The position numbers were made by a program, and so were the translations under genes. Below are positions 26,494 through 55,273 of a DNA stretch of 64,000 bases, in pieces. The stretch is taken from contig NZ_JACYXI010000010.1 of the NCBI RefSeq assembly GCF_014842915.1, positions 62,001 to 126,000 on the forward strand, given 5' to 3'. The notes under the pieces were generated by a model. The model made no database searches. It saw only the letters and a list, made by a program, of their open reading frames with translations, and was not told the origin of the DNA. Position 1 is the first letter of the stretch. Every line of letters starts with the position of its first letter. The DNA is from Roseibium litorale (GTDB lineage: Bacteria > Pseudomonadota > Alphaproteobacteria > Rhizobiales > Stappiaceae).

Positions 26494-28035
26494 ATGGGGC
26501 GCATCGCGACCATCTTTATCGTGATTTGCATGGCGGTTATCGCCATGTCGGTCTCGGCAGTGCTGGTTTTCCAGTTTGGCCGTCCGTTCGGCGAGGCCGT
26601 GTCACTGTCTCTCGCTCTCATGTGCACCATGATCCTGCTGCATCTCCTTCTCAGCCGTTCGCGTGAGCGCAGCGCTGTGAGTGAGGCGGTTGAGCGTCTC
26701 GAAGACCGTATGAGCGAAATCGACGAGGATGTCGGCAACCTGGAAGGCCGGCTGACGGGTGTCGAACACACCATACCGCGCCGGACCCGTGAGGAAATTG
26801 ATCCTCTCTTTGCCGAGGTTGAGGTGCTGGGGTCTCTGGTCAAGCAGATGGCGGAAGCCATGTCGGATCTGGAAACCCGTTTTGAGGACCAGCAGCAGCT
26901 CCCGCCGCCGCCTCAGATGCCAGAGCTTTCGCATTATGCTCCGCAGGGCAGCTACGGCAACGGGCCGGTCTCTCATGCTCAGAGCCAGCCTGGCAGTCAG
27001 TATATGCCCCAGCCGTCTCAGCCTTCGCTGAGTTCTGCCCTCGATCAGCATGGGAACTATGCTGCGCCGCATCAGCCGGCACCCGACTATCCGAACCAGA
27101 ACCCGGCAGGTCATGGCTACACTGCGCCGCCGGTAATGCCTCAGGCGCCTATGGGCAAACCCGCCGCGCAACCCGCTCATCCTGGCGTTTCTCAGGCTGC
27201 TGACGACTTTGCGCGGCCACCGGCTCCTCGTCCTGCTCCGGCAGCTGCCTCTGATCCGGGCATGCGCGAACTGATCCTGTCGGCGCTCAATGCCAACCGC
27301 GTTGAGCTTCATTTGCAGCCGATTGTGACCCTGCCTCAGCGGCAGGTGAAATACTATGAGGCCTTCACTCGGCTGCGGGATTCTCAGGGCGAACTGATCG
27401 ATGCTGCGACCTTCCTGCCTGAAGCCGTGCGCTCCGGCCTTATTGCCCGCATCGACAATCTGCAGCTGTTCCGCTCTGTTCAGGTCATCCGGCGTCTGAC
27501 GGCCCGTAATCGCAATGCGGCGCTGTTCTGCAATGTCTCTTCCCTGTCGCTCGTGGACGAAACCTTCTTCCCCGGCTTCCTGGAGTTCGTGCGCTCGAAC
27601 AAGAGCTTCGCCGATGTGATCGTGTTTGAGTTCGCGCAGGAAGATGTCGCCCAGATGGGCGTGATGGAAATGGAAAGCCTCAGCGCTCTTGCCGAGATTG
27701 GCTTCCACTTTTCCATCGACCGCATCACCGACATGAAGATGGATTTCAAGACCCTGGCACAGCGCGGCTTCAAATACGCCAAGCTTCATGCCGACTATCT
27801 GATCGGCCGCCGGGCTGCCGATCACGGGCACATCCATCCGTCCGATTTCGGTGATCTTCTGCACCGCTACGGCATCGAGCTGATCCCTGATCATGTGGAG
27901 ACCGAGTCCCAGGTGCTTGAGCTGCTCGACTATGAGGTCAAGCTGGCTCAGGGCAACCTCTTCTCTCCGCCGCGCCCGGTGCGTGCCGAAGTTCTCCAAG
28001 GCGCCCCTGCCCCTGCGGCCCGCAAGCGGGCCTGA
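26494..28035 (+). CDS. TipF-like membrane protein with degenerate EAL domain
   Basis: A 513-residue protein with two N-terminal membrane helices (about 5-27 and 32-52), a coiled coil (about 58-130), a Pro/Gln-rich linker (about 130-255) and a C-terminal EAL domain (about 260-495). This order matches Caulobacter TipF, a c-di-GMP receptor that positions the flagellum. The EAL domain keeps the first Glu (YEAF), the NVSS Asn and the QG motif. It has IDR where DDF is expected, KLH where KID is expected, and DHVET where AEGVET is expected. It should therefore bind rather than hydrolyse c-di-GMP. TipF orthology is inference from architecture. A perfect convergent terminator follows. Confidence 0.75.
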   Translation: MGRIATIFIVICMAVIAMSVSAVLVFQFGRPFGEAVSLSLALMCTMILLHLLLSRSRERSAVSEAVERLEDRMSEIDEDVGNLEGRLTGVEHTIPRRTREEIDPLFAEVEVLGSLVKQMAEAMSDLETRFEDQQQLPPPPQMPELSHYAPQGSYGNGPVSHAQSQPGSQYMPQPSQPSLSSALDQHGNYAAPHQPAPDYPNQNPAGHGYTAPPVMPQAPMGKPAAQPAHPGVSQAADDFARPPAPRPAPAAASDPGMRELILSALNANRVELHLQPIVTLPQRQVKYYEAFTRLRDSQGELIDAATFLPEAVRSGLIARIDNLQLFRSVQVIRRLTARNRNAALFCNVSSLSLVDETFFPGFLEFVRSNKSFADVIVFEFAQEDVAQMGVMEMESLSALAEIGFHFSIDRITDMKMDFKTLAQRGFKYAKLHADYLIGRRAADHGHIHPSDFGDLLHRYGIELIPDHVETESQVLELLDYEVKLAQGNLFSPPRPVRAEVLQGAPAPAARKRA

Positions 28036-43214: not shown

Positions 43215-46200
43215 TTATTCGGCGGCAGCCTTGGGAACCGTTGTGTTCCGGTACATGTGCATGCTTTTGGGGATTTCCGTGAGGCTTGCCAGAGCCTCCG
43301 TGACGAGCGGAGGAAGGTTGCGCTGCAAATTTGCGAGCGGCTTCGGACGGCCAATCAGGAACCCCTGGATTTCGTCGCAGCCGCTGCTTGCCAGAAACAG
43401 CAGCTTGTCCATTTCTTCGACACCTTCCGCCACGATGCTCATGTTCAGCGCCTTGCCGAGCCGGACAACCGTTTCGATGATGGCCTGAGAGGAAGAGTTC
43501 TGGCCTGCTTCCTGAACAAAGGAACGGTCGATCTTGATCGTGTCGAACGGGAACCGGCTGAGATAGCCGAGAGACGAGTAGCCCACACCAAAGTCATCAA
43601 GGGCGATCTTGAAGCCAAGATCCTTGAGGCTCATCAAGATCGACAAAGCGCGCTCGTCGTCTTCAATCAGGAGATTTTCGGTGATCTCGAACTCCAGCCT
43701 GCTTGCCTCTACTTGATGACGTTCCAAGGCCTTGCGCACATTGTCGATGAAATCGGCATCGCGGAACTGTACCGGGCTGACATTCACGCTGATCCGGGCA
43801 TCAAGGATGCTGGCCTTTGCAGCTGAGAGAGCAGCGTCAATGACCCACTGGCCGATTGGAATGATCTGGCCGGAGTTCTCGGCGGCCGGGATGAAGTCCA
43901 CCGGGCTGACCTGTCCCCGGACCGGGTGGTTCCAGCGGATGAGGGCCTCATAGGAAGCAATTCTCAGTGTCTTCAGATCCAGCCGGGGCTGGAAGTGAAG
44001 CTCGAACTGCCCCGCCTGAATGGCGTCATGCAGGTCCTCTTCCAGAAGGCGCCTTGCGCGCATCTCGTCGCCCATGCCGGGCTGATAGACCTTGTAGGTC
44101 CGGCGTCCCAGGTCCTTTGCATTGTACAGCGCGATGTCCGCGTTGGAGACAATCACCTCTGCGTTCTCGGTTTCACGGGTGATCAAGGCGACGCCGATGC
44201 TTGCACCGGGCCTAAGCACAAGACCGTTTCCGCAGTCTATCGGCTCGGCGAGCAGATGGACCAGCCGGTGCGCGAGGTCAGCAGCCTGATTGGAGAACTC
44301 GATCCCGCGCAGGATCACGGCGAACTCATCCCCGCCCAGCCGGGCGATCGTGTCTGCGGGGCGGGTGTGTTCGCGCAGTCTGTCTGCTGTCACACGGATA
44401 ACCTTGTCGCCGACCGGGTGACCGTGAATGTCATTGATATCCTTGAATCTATCCAGATCCAGCAGCAGAAGGGCCGCAGATTTGCCTGTGGTCCGGCAAT
44501 AGTCGATCACGTGATTGATCTCGGAATTGAAGACAGCGCGGTTCGGCAGGTCGGTCAGAGTGTCATGCTGGGCAAGATGCAGGATCTTGGCTTCGGCTGC
44601 CTTGCGCTGGCGAAGGTCAACGAGTGCTGAGACGCGGGTCGGCGTTCCGCGGTAGGCGATGACGCGGGTGCGGATTTCGACCGGGATGGGCTCACCACTG
44701 CGATTGACCAGCTCCATTTCCCGCGGCTGAAGCTCGGCTTTCGCAAGATGGCTTTCCAGGGTGCCTGCCAGCTCTGACTGCACGAACTCATAGAGACCGC
44801 GCATCTTCAGCTCATCGATCTTGTAACCCAGGAGATCCTCAAGGGCGGCATTGCCGTCGAGGATGCGCCCGTCGACGGAGATCACGATGGCGTCGAAGGT
44901 CGCGTTGGCGAGGGCGGACATCCTCTCGCCTTCCTCGCGCGAGCGCTTTGCGTCGGCGGCTTTGCCCTGGGCAACTTCAACATTCTGGATCGTGTCCATG
45001 AGAGCGTTGAACATGCGTGTCAGGCGCTCGGAATCGTCGCCGCGTTCGACGGCCAGGCGCATGTTCAAGTCAGCCTTGCCCGCGATCACCTTTTCCAAAG
45101 CGTCTTCCACATGGCCGATGCCGAGGCGTGTGCCGTGCTCGGATTCGTTCATGCCGATGTCTTCCGCATTCGCATCAATGCGCAGCGGAACGGCAAAAGA
45201 CAGGGCGCGGAGGAAGACGTATCCGGCACCAAAGCACCAGACAAAGTTGATCACAACGCCTTCAAGCTGGATCAGGAACTGGGCGCCGCGGTCCCCCAAG
45301 GGGAGATGGCTTTCAGGCGCAAGCAACGCAAGCCCGAGTGTGCCGACGACACCGGCAACACCGTGGACCCCGATGGCCCCGACTGCGTCGTCGATCTTCA
45401 GATACCGCTCGATGAGGGTAGTCGAGTAGACAGCCGCAAGGCCTCCCAAGACGCCGATGACCGCACTGCCCGCAGGCGTCAGCACATGGCAGCCAGCGGT
45501 GATGGCTACAAGGCCTCCCAGAAGTCCGGAAAGTGACTTCTCAGGCAGGATCACCCTGTCCTGGGACCAGCCGAGGAAATAGCCCGCCGCCGCCCCCGTG
45601 GCAGCGGCCAGAACCGTGTTGACGATGATGGGAGCGATATCTGCGGATGCCTTGAGGGTCGATCCGCCGTTGAACCCGATCCATCCAACAAACAAAAGCA
45701 GCGCGCCAGCGGTGGCAAGCACCGAACTGTGCCCCTGGATGCGCATGGGCAGACCGTTGTGATCATACCGGCCCTGCCGGGGGCCGATGAGCAGGCAGGC
45801 AGCAAGTGCGATCCAGCCGCCGGTGCCATGAACAACGGTTGAACCGGCGAAATCCACGAAGCCCTGGTTGGCCAGAAAGGAGCTCGTGTTTTCGATCAGA
45901 GCGCTCCCCCAAGCCCAGTGCGTGAAGACTGGATAGATGACCGCAGCCGTAAACAGAGAACACCAGACATAAGCGGAGAGCCGCATGCGTTCGGCAACCG
46001 CTCCGGAGATGATGGTCGCAGCCGTCCCGCAAAACATCACCTGAAAAGCGAAGAAGGCGTAGCCCCAGGTGTCGAGCTTTTCCAGAAGAAACAGGTTCTG
46101 GTCGAAACCGATCCAGAAGCCGTTTGACGCGCCAAAGGCGAACATGAACCCTACGCTGGCGAAGGCTATAACGCTGAAGGCGAAATCCAGGAGGTTCTTC

Positions 46201-46451
46201 TGGGCGACGTTGATGGAGTTCTTTGAGCGGACAAGTCCTGCCTCCAGCAGCATGAAGCCGACCTGCATCATCAGAACGAGAGCTGCCGCGATCATGACCC
46301 AAAGCAGATCGAGGCTCTCCCTCAGGCTTTCATGTGCCTCAAGCACAGAACGGCCTGTATCGGTTGCCCAGGCGCCGTGCGTCATGGTCAGTGAAACTGC
46401 CATGGCCGCCGCAATCCACACCCCGAAGTGGAGAAGCAACTTCTTCGCCAT
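43215..46451 (-). CDS. Ammonium transporter - HAMP-like - PAS - GGDEF - EAL fusion
   Basis: A 1078-residue protein. A signal peptide (about 1-28) precedes an Amt domain (about 40-425) with its key residues kept: the Asp and first pore His in DFAGSTVVHGTGG, the second pore His in GAIGVHGVAG, the gate Phe in FQVMF, and Phe/Ser in GWIGFNGGS. A HAMP-like stretch (about 435-495) leads to PAS (about 505-620). GGDEF (about 628-790) keeps ARLGGDEFAVI and the RPAD inhibitory site. EAL (about 805-1050) keeps YEALIRW, DDFGVGYSS, KIDRSF and AEGVEE. Both c-di-GMP enzymes look active. I infer an ammonium sensor or transceptor controlling c-di-GMP. No glnK lies nearby. ATG 46472 is an alternative start. Confidence 0.93.
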   Translation of the reverse strand: MAKKLLLHFGVWIAAAMAVSLTMTHGAWATDTGRSVLEAHESLRESLDLLWVMIAAALVLMMQVGFMLLEAGLVRSKNSINVAQKNLLDFAFSVIAFASVGFMFAFGASNGFWIGFDQNLFLLEKLDTWGYAFFAFQVMFCGTAATIISGAVAERMRLSAYVWCSLFTAAVIYPVFTHWAWGSALIENTSSFLANQGFVDFAGSTVVHGTGGWIALAACLLIGPRQGRYDHNGLPMRIQGHSSVLATAGALLLFVGWIGFNGGSTLKASADIAPIIVNTVLAAATGAAAGYFLGWSQDRVILPEKSLSGLLGGLVAITAGCHVLTPAGSAVIGVLGGLAAVYSTTLIERYLKIDDAVGAIGVHGVAGVVGTLGLALLAPESHLPLGDRGAQFLIQLEGVVINFVWCFGAGYVFLRALSFAVPLRIDANAEDIGMNESEHGTRLGIGHVEDALEKVIAGKADLNMRLAVERGDDSERLTRMFNALMDTIQNVEVAQGKAADAKRSREEGERMSALANATFDAIVISVDGRILDGNAALEDLLGYKIDELKMRGLYEFVQSELAGTLESHLAKAELQPREMELVNRSGEPIPVEIRTRVIAYRGTPTRVSALVDLRQRKAAEAKILHLAQHDTLTDLPNRAVFNSEINHVIDYCRTTGKSAALLLLDLDRFKDINDIHGHPVGDKVIRVTADRLREHTRPADTIARLGGDEFAVILRGIEFSNQAADLAHRLVHLLAEPIDCGNGLVLRPGASIGVALITRETENAEVIVSNADIALYNAKDLGRRTYKVYQPGMGDEMRARRLLEEDLHDAIQAGQFELHFQPRLDLKTLRIASYEALIRWNHPVRGQVSPVDFIPAAENSGQIIPIGQWVIDAALSAAKASILDARISVNVSPVQFRDADFIDNVRKALERHQVEASRLEFEITENLLIEDDERALSILMSLKDLGFKIALDDFGVGYSSLGYLSRFPFDTIKIDRSFVQEAGQNSSSQAIIETVVRLGKALNMSIVAEGVEEMDKLLFLASSGCDEIQGFLIGRPKPLANLQRNLPPLVTEALASLTEIPKSMHMYRNTTVPKAAAE

Positions 46452-46547
46452 CAAATGCCCCAAACCATTCAACCCGCTTGAGAATTTAGGGAAAGTGTTA
46501 AGCGTTGGTTTTCATTAGATAAAAAACCGTGGAGCGTGGAGAGTATT

Positions 46548-46572
46548 GGGAAAACTTACAGAGAGTTTTCCC
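46548..46572. repeat. Inverted repeat upstream of the Amt fusion gene
   Basis: GGGAAAACT (46548-46556) and AGTTTTCCC (46564-46572) pair perfectly with a 7-base loop. It lies about 97 bases before the fusion gene start and about 80 bases past the tadA stop. It could be a tadA terminator (weak T tract) or an operator for the fusion gene. Confidence 0.6.
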
Positions 46573-46652
46573 TTCTAACTCCATGTTTCCGCAAGGGCAG
46601 AATGCGAGTGGTGATCGGAAGCCTGATTTCAGATTTTTTAAGCAAAAGATTT

Positions 46653-47144
46653 CTAGTCACGTCTCTCCTGGAAGAATTCTTTCAAAAGCTGTGCGGCCGG
46701 GCGCTCTGAAATACCTGAATAAACCTCTGGGGCGTGGTGACAAGTCGGCTGGCAGAAGAAACGGGTTCCGTGCTCGACGGCTCCTCCCTTCTCGTCGCTT
46801 GCTCCAAAGTAAAGGCGGCGGATGCGGGCGAAAGAAATAGCCCCCGCGCACATGGGGCAGGGTTCGAGGGTTACATAGAGATCGCACTCGGGAAGGCGCT
46901 GGGTGCCAAGTTTTGCGCAGGCCGCGCGGATGACCTGGATTTCGGCATGGGCGGTCGGGTCATTCAGCTCAAGGGTCCGGTTGCCATCTGCCGCCAGGAT
47001 GGCGCCGTTTTGCACCAGGACAGCTCCGACCGGCACCTCCCCGCGGGCTGCAGCAAGTTCCGCCTGCCGCAGGGCCTCCGTCATGAAGCTGATGCTAGAG
47101 GCCCCGGTGTTTTGGGAGGGCGGATAGGGAGTGCCGGCTGGCAT
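46653..47144 (-). CDS. tadA: tRNA-specific adenosine deaminase
   Basis: Converts the wobble adenosine 34 of tRNA-Arg(ACG) to inosine. The zinc-site motifs are complete: HAEIQVIRAA with the catalytic Glu, and LEPCPMCAGAIS with the two ligand cysteines. The 163-residue length includes an N-terminal stretch (MPAGTPYPPSQNTG) before the core; ATG 47144 lacks a good ribosome site and ATG 47084 is an alternative. In this order of bacteria tadA is often next to rluB, as here. Confidence 0.94.
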   Translation of the reverse strand: MPAGTPYPPSQNTGASSISFMTEALRQAELAAARGEVPVGAVLVQNGAILAADGNRTLELNDPTAHAEIQVIRAACAKLGTQRLPECDLYVTLEPCPMCAGAISFARIRRLYFGASDEKGGAVEHGTRFFCQPTCHHAPEVYSGISERPAAQLLKEFFQERRD

Positions 47145-52054: not shown

Positions 52055-55000
52055 TTAGCTGAAGAAGGCCAGGTCGCCTGGGCTTGCCTCAAGCCATGAG
52101 GTGAACTGCTCGAACGGCATTGGCCGGGCAATCAGGTAGCCTTGCACAGAGAAATTGCCCATCATCCGAAGCCGTTCGAACTGCGTTTCTGTTTCGACGC
52201 CTTCGCACACGACATCAATGTTCAGGGCACGGGCCAAATGGATGAGGTGGTTGACCACGATCTCTTTCTTGTTGTCCGTCAGGATCTGGGCGGTAAAGCT
52301 CCGGTCGATCTTCAGGCCATTGATCGGGAGGTCCGCGACATGGGACAGGGACGCATAGCCGGTGCCGAAGTCATCGAGTTCGATGTGGACGCCCTGGTCG
52401 TAAAGCTCTTCCAGGACCTGCCAATTGTGATTGCGCTCCGTGTCCAGGAAGACGGACTCGAGCACCTCCGCCGTCAGCAGTTCCGGTCCGACATCATATT
52501 TCGCCATGGCCGTCAGGAAATCCTGAAGCAGCGTGCCGGACGGCAGGTGTGATGGGGAAAGGTTCACGGCCATTCTGCCGAAATGAAGCCCTGCCTTTTT
52601 CCATTTGCCCGCTGCGGCAATCGCCTTGTCCAGAACGATCTGGCCGAGAGGCACAGCGAGGCTGGTCTTTTCGATGACATTCAGGAAGGACCCAGGCGCC
52701 AGAACACCCCGGGTGGGGTGCTGCCAGCGCACAAGGGCCTCAACCCCGGTCACCTGCTGCGTCCGGTTGTTGACCTGGGGCTGGAACACCAGGAAGAACT
52801 CGTCCCGCCTGAAAGCCAGCCGGAGCTCCTGCTCAAGCCTTGCTTCCTCGTCGCTGTCGATCTTCATGTCGCTGGTGAAATAGCTCCAGCGGTCCTTGCC
52901 CTCGTCCTTGGAGCGGTAGAGAGCCAGGTCAGCGTGAACCAGAAGGGAAGAGAAATCTTCTCCGTCATCAGGGCAGCAGGCAACACCCATTGAAACGGAG
53001 GGCCAAATCTGATTACCCTCATACTCCATCGGTCCGCGCATGACGAGATTCAGTCTTTCGCAAAGTTCCTCCGCATCAGAGTGCGGTCCGGAAGCGAGGA
53101 TAACAAACTCATCTCCGCCCCAGCGGTAAGCGGTTCCAAGGCCGAAGCACCCTGTCTGCAGTCTCTCACCGGTCTCTTCAAGGCAGGCATCGCCGGCGGA
53201 ATGGCCAAGCGTATCGTTGATCCGTTTGAAGTTATCTATGTCGATGTGAATGATGAATGCCGGCTTTTCGGAATTACCGGGGGCGAAAGCGGCTTTCGCG
53301 TCACGCTGGCAGGCTGCCCTGTTGGGCAGCCTGGTAAGGGCGTCGAAATAGGCGAGGCGTTCGGCCTCTTCCCGCGCCAGCTGGGTTTCCTTCTCGCGCT
53401 TGATGCGTTCGGAAATGTCATTGCAGATAGCTATGAGTGACGTCTTGCTGCGGGACTTGTGGGCTTGCAACTGGACTTCCACCGGATAGGTGGTGCCGTC
53501 CTTGCGTTTGTGCCGGCTTTCAACCTTGACGGAGGTCAAACGACCCTCGACGACGTCGCTGATTGTCTTTAGCAGGCTTTCCCGATTTGCCTCCTGAGAG
53601 ATATCCCACAGGTACAGATCAAGAATTTCCCGGTCCGAGTAGCCAAGGTTCTCGCGGGCACACCTGTTTGCGTGCTCGCATTTGAACGTCTCACCGTCGA
53701 AAATGTAAATTTCGTTCAAAGACGCTTCGAGGATACCAGCAAGCCATTGGCTGCGGTCCAGCGCGTTGTGCTGTTCAGTGATGTCACGCGTCGTGCCGAA
53801 CAAACGTGCCGCTTTGCCATCATCACCGGCTTCTATGTTACACCGCACATGGACGTGGCGGACTTCACCATCCTTCCGGATCAGCTGGTGCTCGATTTCG
53901 AAGGGAGTGCAAGTCTCCATGTGCGCATTCACAGTTTCTGTGAGCCTGCGCAAATCCTCTTCGGGCACCATGTCGTAATAGGTTTTTACTGCTTCGGGCA
54001 ATGAGGTTGAGTGTGGAATGCCAGTAATTTGGTAGATCTGGTCGGACCATACAATTTCTCCGGTCCGCAAGTTGCGTTCCCAGCTCCCTACGGCGGCGAT
54101 GCGTTGAGCTTCTTCCAGCCGGTCTTTTTGACGTTCAAGTGCCTTGGTATTGTGCTGCACAGCACGTTCAAGCTTCCTGCGCGTCCGCAAGACAGCTTTT
54201 TGCAATCCATGGGACATGCGGCTGAACAAAGCCCAGGTGATAATTGCGATAAGGCTGAGCAGAAGGAGGACCACCGTCAGGCTCTTGAGAAGAGTGAGGG
54301 CATCCTCCGTGATGTCATGGGAGATCAGGAGGGAACTATGGTTTTGGCCGTCTGCATAGGGCAACGCCAGGAGACTGGTCATGAGGAGCTGGCCGTCAGT
54401 CCAGACAAGTCTGTCAGGCAGCCAGTTGTCATTGGCCGATGCTCCGATGCGTGAAGATATATCTGACGGAATCACGGACTTCCCGATCGGCCTGTACGCC
54501 TGGTTACCCGCGAAAAGCCAGCCCTGCTGGCCTGCTCCGGTAGAACCCGGCTCTCGGCTTATCCGCTGAACCGGCTGAAATTCGATAATGCTGACACCCA
54601 GTGTCGAGTGGATAAACTGCAGGGTCTGGCGCATCCCGGCACCGATGCGGACATAACCCGCGATTTCACCATTCTTCCGCCAAGGGGCAATTGCCATAAC
54701 AGCCGGGCTGCCGTCCGTGCCTGGTTCCAGCCCAGATACGAGGTTTCCGGTTCGCGCGCTCTGCTTTAGCAGGCTGCTTGAGAGCGAAAATGAGGCCTCG
54801 GGTAGGGCCTTTTGCGCCGGGAGCAACTGCAGGTTCGTGTCATAAAGGGCCAGTTCCGAAATGTGCCCGTTCCCTGACAGCAACGGGATCGTCTGCTCCA
54901 AGAGCCTGCGCACATAACTGGTTTCACCAGATTGAAAAGCTTTTTCCATCTGCGGCATGCGGATCAGAGCTTCCAGTGTCTTTTCAACACCTGCGATCGC

Positions 55001-55273
55001 TTGGGCGTTCTGGTAGTCAAGAAGCCGCCGTGTAACATCTGCCTTCCGGTCGAGTGTCCTATTGACATGCCTCAGTTCATTGGTGGCGTTGAAAGTCAAC
55101 AAGGACAGGAACAGGGCGACGAAGAAACAGATAAGCGCGATCTTCAACGGCCGGACAAAATGCCGGCCATTTTTACTCCAGTGCAGAAGGATCATGTCCA
55201 TGCGTGCTGAGAAACCGCGGGTTTCCTGCATTCTGGGATCTACTGGGTTTTCAGTTTCTGCATTGGCCGACAC
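52055..55273 (-). CDS. Membrane sensor with two PAS, GGDEF and EAL domains
   Basis: A 1072-residue c-di-GMP protein. Two membrane helices (about 46-66 and 337-358) bracket an extracytoplasmic sensor region that resembles a Cache-type domain. Then come a coiled coil, two PAS domains (about 400-510 and 515-630), GGDEF (about 640-800) and EAL (about 815-1065). The cyclase motif is YRWGGDEFVIL without the RxxD inhibitory site. The phosphodiesterase motifs VEALVRW, DDFGTGYAS, KIDRSF and EGVETE are intact. Both activities look possible. I start at GTG 55273 with GAAGG upstream. A set of GCGTTAA repeats lies upstream at 55393-55449. Confidence 0.92.
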   Translation of the reverse strand: MSANAETENPVDPRMQETRGFSARMDMILLHWSKNGRHFVRPLKIALICFFVALFLSLLTFNATNELRHVNRTLDRKADVTRRLLDYQNAQAIAGVEKTLEALIRMPQMEKAFQSGETSYVRRLLEQTIPLLSGNGHISELALYDTNLQLLPAQKALPEASFSLSSSLLKQSARTGNLVSGLEPGTDGSPAVMAIAPWRKNGEIAGYVRIGAGMRQTLQFIHSTLGVSIIEFQPVQRISREPGSTGAGQQGWLFAGNQAYRPIGKSVIPSDISSRIGASANDNWLPDRLVWTDGQLLMTSLLALPYADGQNHSSLLISHDITEDALTLLKSLTVVLLLLSLIAIITWALFSRMSHGLQKAVLRTRRKLERAVQHNTKALERQKDRLEEAQRIAAVGSWERNLRTGEIVWSDQIYQITGIPHSTSLPEAVKTYYDMVPEEDLRRLTETVNAHMETCTPFEIEHQLIRKDGEVRHVHVRCNIEAGDDGKAARLFGTTRDITEQHNALDRSQWLAGILEASLNEIYIFDGETFKCEHANRCARENLGYSDREILDLYLWDISQEANRESLLKTISDVVEGRLTSVKVESRHKRKDGTTYPVEVQLQAHKSRSKTSLIAICNDISERIKREKETQLAREEAERLAYFDALTRLPNRAACQRDAKAAFAPGNSEKPAFIIHIDIDNFKRINDTLGHSAGDACLEETGERLQTGCFGLGTAYRWGGDEFVILASGPHSDAEELCERLNLVMRGPMEYEGNQIWPSVSMGVACCPDDGEDFSSLLVHADLALYRSKDEGKDRWSYFTSDMKIDSDEEARLEQELRLAFRRDEFFLVFQPQVNNRTQQVTGVEALVRWQHPTRGVLAPGSFLNVIEKTSLAVPLGQIVLDKAIAAAGKWKKAGLHFGRMAVNLSPSHLPSGTLLQDFLTAMAKYDVGPELLTAEVLESVFLDTERNHNWQVLEELYDQGVHIELDDFGTGYASLSHVADLPINGLKIDRSFTAQILTDNKKEIVVNHLIHLARALNIDVVCEGVETETQFERLRMMGNFSVQGYLIARPMPFEQFTSWLEASPGDLAFFS

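What the first reader, a model, noticed from the sequence alone, without database searches (positions are those of the whole stretch)
43215..46451. Ammonium channel fused to a complete c-di-GMP synthase/hydrolase pair
Seen: an Amt domain with the twin pore histidines, gate phenylalanine and aspartate kept, followed by HAMP-like, PAS, GGDEF (with RxxD site) and EAL domains, all with intact catalytic motifs. Known: Amt proteins normally act with GlnK, and fusions to histidine kinases or cyclases have been reported. Inference: ammonium passage or binding is relayed through HAMP and PAS to set c-di-GMP, linking nitrogen supply to motility or biofilm. The dual GGDEF-EAL output and absence of glnK make this the best candidate for a little-described system here.
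Basis: partly seen in the sequence, partly recalled or inferred. Interest (0 to 1): 0.85.

Follow-up and report, generated by a model that had tools for sequence, protein, structure and literature searches.

The report
Putative ammonium receptor controlling cyclic di-GMP
A bacterium related to Roseibium carries one membrane protein in which an ammonium-channel-like sensor is fused to the enzymes that make and break the signal c-di-GMP, so outside ammonium probably helps set swimming or settling; receptors of this kind are known, and this two-enzyme version still has to be tested.

Summary
Window 43215-46451 (-) encodes 1078 aa: Amt, HAMP-like linker, PAS, GGDEF, EAL. It is no chance fusion: 27 of 45 genomes of its genus carry Amt, GGDEF and EAL in one frame, and the catalytic residues checked are kept in 30 of 30 aligned orthologs. 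It belongs to a known kind, Amt-type ammonium receptors: Ks-Amt5 (Amt-histidine kinase, PMC5764959) and PDB 8qj3/8qj4/8qpf (Amt plus GGDEF). A six-position version of the buried Ks-Amt5 ammonium site is complete in 30/30 orthologs and in 0 of 24 distinct unfused Amts of the genus, so binding is a likelier trigger than transport. New here: Amt-GGDEF-EAL arose more than once (single clade rejected); this lineage shares Amt and HAMP linker with Amt-chemoreceptor (MCP) fusions, suggesting outputs exchanged after HAMP; a genus relative has Amt-MCP-PilZ. glnK is absent only locally. Ammonium response, direction and net enzyme activity are untested. New variant of a known kind.

The parts
43215..46451 (-). 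Whole gene: Amt - HAMP-like linker - PAS - GGDEF - EAL, 1078 aa, ATG start
46362..46451 (-). N-terminal signal-peptide-like stretch (aa 1-30, ...AWA/TD), read by eye
   Evidence: sequence; aa 1-40 have mean identity 0.16 to orthologs
45129..46304 (-). Amt domain (aa 50-441); twin His H208/H363, Phe gate F140/F260, filter W181/S264
46005..46265 (-). Stretch holding the putative NH4+ receptor-site residues Q63, E70, N86, D89, T146, S149 (Ks-Amt5 Q24, E31, N47, D50, T109, T112)
44985..45143 (-). HAMP-like linker (aa 437-489), alignable with Amt-MCP relatives
44610..44930 (-). PAS domain (aa 508-614)
44100..44573 (-). GGDEF domain (aa 627-784), RLGGDEF intact, RxxD at R697-D700
43344..44039 (-). 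EAL domain (aa 805-1036), catalytic residues intact

Best explanation
It is a one-protein receptor for outside ammonium. An Amt fold that keeps the pore filter and twin His guides NH4+ into a buried receptor site (Q63, E70, N86, D89, T146, S149). Occupancy shifts the C-terminal helix and HAMP-like linker. HAMP and PAS pair the subunits and switch the balance between the GGDEF cyclase and the EAL phosphodiesterase, so c-di-GMP follows ammonium without GlnK or a response regulator. Shown by sequence: the architecture, its conservation, intact active-site residues and most of the site residues. Inferred: NH4+ binding, the relay, and that both enzymes work. The direction is a guess: I lean to ammonium raising cyclase output, at about 55 to 45.
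For: Domains in one frame; 27 of 45 genus genomes with Amt+GGDEF+EAL in one frame. Site residues mapped on Ks-Amt5. The six-position site (Q,E,N,D,T,S/T) is complete in 30/30 orthologs, 17/17 Amt-MCP, 22/23 Amt-HK and 11/14 GGDEF-EAL fusions of other classes, against 0 of 25 rows (24 distinct genes; L035 and L211 are one gene) of more distant unfused Amts of the genus, both other full-length Amts of this genome among them. GGDEF and EAL catalytic residues 30/30. Within the fetched stretches no neighbour family recurs outside the closest relatives, as expected of a stand-alone unit. Ks-Amt5 binds NH4+ selectively without efficient transport, and NH4+ changes its kinase activity (PMC5764959, Results parts 1-2 read). 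The closest solved chains include an Amt with C-terminal GGDEF.
Against: No activity data. T51 of the Ks-Amt5 site is F90 here and T112 is S149. Two of the three residues said to block the Ks-Amt5 pore differ (Y30 is L69, F34 is L73), and F,L,L at these places also stands in an unfused Amt of this genome (L002), so transport is not excluded. The site is also complete in 8 of 14 unfused Amts that are closer to the query (E<=1e-60), so it marks a subfamily, not fusion as such; rows are related, not independent. Amt is trimeric (PMC5764959), while GGDEF, EAL and HAMP usually work as dimers (recalled). The fold prediction of linker plus PAS was too poor to use (mean pLDDT 43).
Confidence: 0.7

Rival explanations
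1. Transceptor: the Amt part still conducts ammonium, and passage (flux), not static binding, drives the c-di-GMP output.
For: All pore residues tested are kept, and two of three blocking residues of Ks-Amt5 are not.
Against: The receptor site, incomplete in the genome's two other full-length Amts, is complete in 30/30 orthologs; the related Ks-Amt5 does not translocate efficiently (PMC5764959).
Confidence: 0.15
2. Ammonium-gated phosphodiesterase: the GGDEF domain only binds GTP to tune the EAL, so the net output is c-di-GMP removal. (A narrower form of the best explanation; the odds overlap.)
For: RxxD is kept in only 17 (R) and 20 (D) of 30 orthologs; the two best-scoring NCBIfam models on the C-terminal half are phosphodiesterases, both far below their cut-offs.
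Against: The GGDEF signature and metal residues are kept in all 30 orthologs bar one F-to-Y at the last letter.
Confidence: 0.3
3. The Amt part is only a membrane anchor and the PAS domain is the real sensor of another cue.
For: A PAS domain is present in all 30 orthologs; PAS domains often sense (recalled).
Against: PAS has 8 invariant positions in 107, against 110 in 401 of Amt; there is no Cys in the window's PAS stretch and no invariant His, so no LOV or axial-His haem signature; the receptor site is invariant in the orthologs.
Confidence: 0.1

Closest known systems
Ks-Amt5 of Kuenenia stuttgartiensis (PDB 6eu6, PMC5764959)
   Same: Amt receptor domain, 171 of 397 aligned residues identical; filter, Phe gate, twin His and five of seven NH4+ site residues identical, a sixth T to S.
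   Different: Its output is a histidine kinase without HAMP or PAS (PMC5764959); here HAMP-like, PAS, GGDEF and EAL.
Amt-GGDEF receptor of PDB 8qj3/8qj4/8qpf (named only 'Ammonium transporter'; that it is Sd-Amt1 of Shewanella denitrificans, Amt-HAMP-cyclase, is recalled, the paper is not held)
   Same: Amt plus GGDEF; same site letters Q,E,N,D,T,S and the same F for T51 (letters copied by hand).
   Different: Chains of 644-661 residues with Amt and GGDEF matches only, so no room for EAL; its Amt lies with Amt-HK proteins, not with this lineage.
Amt-HAMP-MCP proteins of Alphaproteobacteria (found here; one is annotated merely as ammonium transporter on a Phaeobacter plasmid)
   Same: Nearest Amt relatives outside the orthologs, alignable HAMP linker, same NH4+ site 17/17.
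   Different: Output is a chemotaxis signalling domain.
AmtB, the GlnK-controlled ammonium channel (2nuu and kin)
   Same: Fold family and pore residues.
   Different: Lacks the receptor site (EcAmtB reads T,Y,V,T,G,V at the six positions) and has no output domain.

Membership tests
Amt-type ammonium receptor (Ks-Amt5 kind) | Complete Amt domain with filter, Phe gate and twin His | tested here: met
Amt-type ammonium receptor (Ks-Amt5 kind) | Buried two-ion NH4+ site (Q24, E31, N47, D50, T51, T109, T112) | tested here: met
   Met for six of seven if S counts for T: five identical, T112 to S, T51 to F; the cyclase-linked chain 8qj3 shows the same two changes
Amt-type ammonium receptor (Ks-Amt5 kind) | C-terminally fused signalling output in the same chain | tested here: met
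Amt-type ammonium receptor (Ks-Amt5 kind) | Pore blocked by bulky F27, Y30, F34 | tested here: inconclusive
   F66, L69, L73; the same three letters stand in an unfused Amt of the genome (L002)
Amt-type ammonium receptor (Ks-Amt5 kind) | NH4+ binding changes output activity | not testable with these tools
   needs purified protein
Amt-HAMP-diguanylate cyclase receptor (8qj3 kind) | HAMP between Amt and output (recalled for 8qj3) | tested here: met
   HAMP-like linker by homology; no direct Pfam hit in the window protein
Amt-HAMP-diguanylate cyclase receptor (8qj3 kind) | GGDEF as the sole output, same lineage | tested here: not met
   PAS and EAL added; separate Amt lineage
Bifunctional GGDEF-EAL enzyme | Intact catalytic residues in both domains | tested here: met
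   30/30 orthologs
Bifunctional GGDEF-EAL enzyme | Both activities measured | not testable with these tools
   needs enzyme assays
GlnK-gated AmtB uptake channel | glnK next to the amt gene | tested here: not met
   the nearest P-II gene lies beside another amt on contig C32

The most novel reading that the evidence does not exclude
One ammonium-receptor module (Amt with a buried NH4+ site plus HAMP) has been plugged into three major bacterial outputs: histidine kinase, chemoreceptor and c-di-GMP enzymes. GGDEF-EAL was attached at least twice, and in this lineage it was exchanged with a chemoreceptor output just after HAMP. In a genus relative (G007) ammonium would set c-di-GMP through this protein while an Amt-MCP-PilZ chemoreceptor reads ammonium and c-di-GMP together: a two-receptor ammonium circuit deciding between swimming towards and settling at a nitrogen source.
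Probability: 0.45. Interest if true: 0.72.

Novelty: new variant of a known kind. Interest (0 to 1): 0.56.

Why it matters
Few bacterial c-di-GMP enzymes have a known input signal (recalled). Here a candidate input can be named from residues, and the path from signal to messenger would sit in one chain, so it can be tested directly. The Amt-MCP and Amt-MCP-PilZ relatives suggest an ammonium-sensing family that annotation may label as transporters, as it does in the one annotated case looked at.

Tried and rejected
Chance or artefact fusion: rejected, 27 of 45 genus genomes and 30 aligned orthologs. Degenerate output domains: rejected. Single origin of all Amt-GGDEF-EAL proteins: rejected by AU test, p 4.6e-31 (two trees, quick tree, 43 of 100 rows held together; the label was set before the tree, the test was chosen after seeing it). 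In the GGDEF-EAL tree the 30 orthologs are one group (99*), with own-genome paralogs rather than the other-class fusions next to them, but the supports there are weak, many branches are long, and starred branches do not by themselves force more than one origin of the other-class group (17 of the 18 other own EAL frames used, L201 left out as too short a match). Rows left out: L005, L034, L035 (duplicates or near-copies) and L156 (fragment) from the first Amt tree (104 rows); also EcAmtB, L119, L157, L146 (long branches) from the second (100 rows). Conserved operon: all five neighbours tested (tadA, mutL, rluB, rsmD, a HAD gene) are seen in 6 of 28 stretches, three of them in a seventh (L087), none in the other 21; no other frame family found in at least 4 of the 28 stretches lies outside these seven. 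Flanks seen are mostly about 4 kb. Nitrogen-type promoter: no sigma-54-like site upstream of the gene (one match in the 64 kb, elsewhere, chance mean 2.5); no sigma-70-like site in 46300-46800. Fold of linker plus PAS: two-row alignment, mean pLDDT 43, discarded, no fold search made. Plasmids: none of the 5000 records kept covers 80% of the query (capped). One genome-contig scan gave one ortholog, Roseibium suaedae.

Literature: ten searches. No listed title or abstract start showed an Amt-GGDEF-EAL or Amt-MCP protein; the lists were cut (for example 15 of 65, 15 of 97, 15 of 217, 15 of 138, 10 of 535 papers), and the library is open-licence papers only, so this is no proof of absence from print. 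Two c-di-GMP gene censuses, of five alphaproteobacterial orders (PMC9756655) and of Azospirillum (PMC5845226), do not hold the word ammonium in the main text; their supplements were not seen. Seen of papers: PMC5764959 passages and Results parts 1-2 of 3; PMC10433425, PMC12918730, PMC9756655, PMC8534201, PMC7646526, PMC9239204, PMC5845226 by term search only. The Sd-Amt1 paper is recalled; the DOI I tried is not held.

Full report
What is there. The minus-strand frame 43215-46451 starts with ATG and gives 1078 aa. Pfam finds Ammonium_transp 50-441, PAS_9 520-612, GGDEF 627-784 and EAL 805-1036, and no HAMP. The window lies in a 4.94-Mb genome. The nearest named relative for this gene is Roseibium suaedae (90% identity; Stappiaceae, Hyphomicrobiales), whose contig is that of G044, 'same genus'; I call the genus Roseibium on that ground. 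Neighbours are a mutL frame that ends tail to tail with the gene and a tadA-like gene on the same strand about 200 bp upstream (gene names from my reading of the translations).

Not chance. Of 45 genomes of the genus, 27 have a match at 66% identity or more with a frame of 1065-1143 aa; the loci of all 27 hold Amt, GGDEF and EAL in one frame, the EAL seen in part because the loci end 1500 bp beyond the match. In the family draw 38 of 87 genomes match at E<=1e-60; two of them, G071 and G082, have only an Amt-MCP there. In the order draw 43 of 397 match, with 54 places; of the best 30, given as loci, 29 hold Amt+GGDEF+EAL in one frame and L049 is cut by its contig end after PAS. In the class draw 33 of 385 match; of 27 stretches I fetched from it (20, 7), 20 are Amt-HK, 4 Amt-MCP, 3 unfused and none GGDEF-EAL, while an unfetched frame of 1039 aa in G586 stays unclassified. 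In the phylum draw 38 of 398 match; of 19 stretches fetched, 14 are GGDEF-EAL, 2 MCP, 1 HK, 1 Amt-PAS only and 1 unfused, and 8 more are unfused. I picked stretches partly by frame length, so these class counts are no prevalences.

Enzymes. In the 30 aligned orthologs (window plus 29 from 28 genomes) the metal-binding DxD, the letters GGDE and the EAL residues E835, N890, E922, D952, D953, K973, E1009, Q1029 are invariant; the last F of GGDEF is Y once. RxxD is kept in part only: R697 in 17, D700 in 20 of 30 (the roles of the residues are recalled from the families). Both activities are therefore likely to be under selection; feedback inhibition at RxxD is not general.

Sensor. Ks-Amt5 is an Amt-histidine kinase that binds NH4+ but does not translocate it efficiently, with a buried site of Q24, E31, N47, D50, T51, T109, T112 (PMC5764959). 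On the alignment printed by the PDB search these map to Q63, E70, N86, D89, F90, T146, S149 (the 16 published Ks-Amt5 residues looked up all came out with the published letter). Taking six positions (T51 left out, S allowed for T112) as the site, it is complete in 30 of 30 orthologs, 11 of 14 GGDEF-EAL fusions of other classes (the misses: one ends in A, one reads QENNAS, one lacks its N-terminal part), 17 of 17 Amt-MCP, 22 of 23 Amt-HK (the miss, L119, lacks its N-terminal part), 8 of 14 unfused Amts picked at E<=1e-60, and 0 of 25 rows of other unfused Amts of the genus, which read AENLSS or HEIDAS. One gene stands twice in those 25 (L035 and L211), so 24 genes. The genome's own two other full-length Amts are of these two types (L002, L003). 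The site marks a receptor-like subfamily that includes some unfused members, and the rows are kin, not independent samples.

Linker. The HAMP of the Amt-MCP protein L113 matches the window protein at 437-489 and 23 of the 30 orthologs; 7 orthologs give no match at E<=0.01. Profile against profile, ortholog and Amt-MCP linkers align over 55 columns (probability 98.9, E 3e-17), against 40 columns (E 4.5e-8) for Amt-HK and 37 (E 3e-7) for other-class GGDEF-EAL fusions; five column-shuffled controls gave E 9e-4 to 0.5. Pfam scores HAMP at E<=0.01 in 7 of 30 orthologs, 9 of 17 Amt-MCP, 2 of 23 Amt-HK and 1 of 14 others. Mean identity of orthologs to Amt-MCP is 0.26, 0.35, 0.20, 0.13, 0.08 in steps of 20 from 441, against 0.06, 0.22, 0.16, 0.03, 0.07 to Amt-HK (21 of 23 used). 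So Amt plus HAMP looks like one shared module, and the outputs part company at about residue 490-505.

History. In the Amt-domain tree the 30 orthologs are one group (100*) that joins 16 of 17 Amt-MCP rows (95*; 86 with the 17th), while the 13 other-class GGDEF-EAL rows and the 8qj3 chain lie with most Amt-HK rows (98*) (quick tree, SH-aLRT only). Without four long rows, orthologs plus 15 MCP rows are starred (97*) and with the 16th the support is 93. Forcing all 43 GGDEF-EAL rows into one clade is rejected, p 4.6e-31. In the GGDEF-EAL tree the orthologs are one group (99*), but deeper branches are weak and long. Whether MCP was replaced by PAS-GGDEF-EAL or the reverse cannot be told.

Mechanism. 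I propose that NH4+ enters the outer pore, occupies the buried site and shifts the C-terminal helix; HAMP and PAS relay this to the GGDEF-EAL pair, and c-di-GMP changes. Ks-Amt5 gives the precedent for NH4+ changing an output. For the cyclase-linked receptor I recall, without having the paper, that NH4+ binding pairs HAMP domains and activates the output. The direction of the change here is a guess. How trimeric Amt drives dimeric outputs is an open question that this protein could help to answer.

Wider picture. The genome has 19 EAL-domain frames, so this is one of many inputs into c-di-GMP. It has two P-II genes, one beside another amt, so uptake under GlnK and this receptor probably coexist. 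A P-II protein affects c-di-GMP levels in Azospirillum brasilense (PMC7646526, passages); the present protein would be a shorter route from outside ammonium.

Verdict. Observation confirmed; interpretation right in outline, with binding preferred to passage and the glnK argument weakened. New variant of a known kind, of interest mainly because a family with exchanged outputs, Amt-MCP-PilZ among them, did not show up in the papers listed by my searches and is easy to test.

Noticed in passing
L110:1817-4486 (G007, same genus): Amt-MCP protein with a C-terminal PilZ domain (32.5 bits, cut-off 22.5): a chemoreceptor that could read ammonium and c-di-GMP. Its sister L112 has a weak match to the same tail (phmmer E 1e-8 among 16 proteins). 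G007 also carries the GGDEF-EAL receptor (L028).
   Followed up: partly
L180:3974-6439 (Phaeobacter inhibens plasmid pP88_b, typed conjugative): An 821-aa Amt-MCP fusion annotated only as 'ammonium transporter', next to a recombinase and an IS481 transposase.
   Followed up: partly
G000 contig C34:173040-173432 (L176:4490-4915, -): A short frame (141 aa) matching only the last third of Amt (46.5 bits; frame), possibly a remnant.
   Followed up: no
L107 (G025): Two paralogous Amt-PAS-GGDEF-EAL genes about 7.4 kb apart in one genome.
   Followed up: no
L144:2449-4578 (G1094): An Amt-PAS-PAS protein of 710 aa without GGDEF-EAL in its frame, nested among GGDEF-EAL fusions in the tree.
   Followed up: no
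L159-L163, L168-L170, L173: Nine unfused Amts: eight keep the complete six-position receptor site and L173 has A for the last letter; possible stand-alone receptors or unusual transporters.
   Followed up: no
L119:3073-4884 (G042, same genus): An Amt-HK frame of 604 aa whose Amt match starts at profile position 48, without the first helices and the receptor site.
   Followed up: no
window 52055-55273 (-): A second large PAS-PAS-GGDEF-EAL protein (1072 aa) about 5.6 kb from the receptor gene.
   Followed up: partly
window 26494-28035 (+): A 513-aa protein with a C-terminal EAL domain (122.7 bits) and no other Pfam match at E<=0.001.
   Followed up: no
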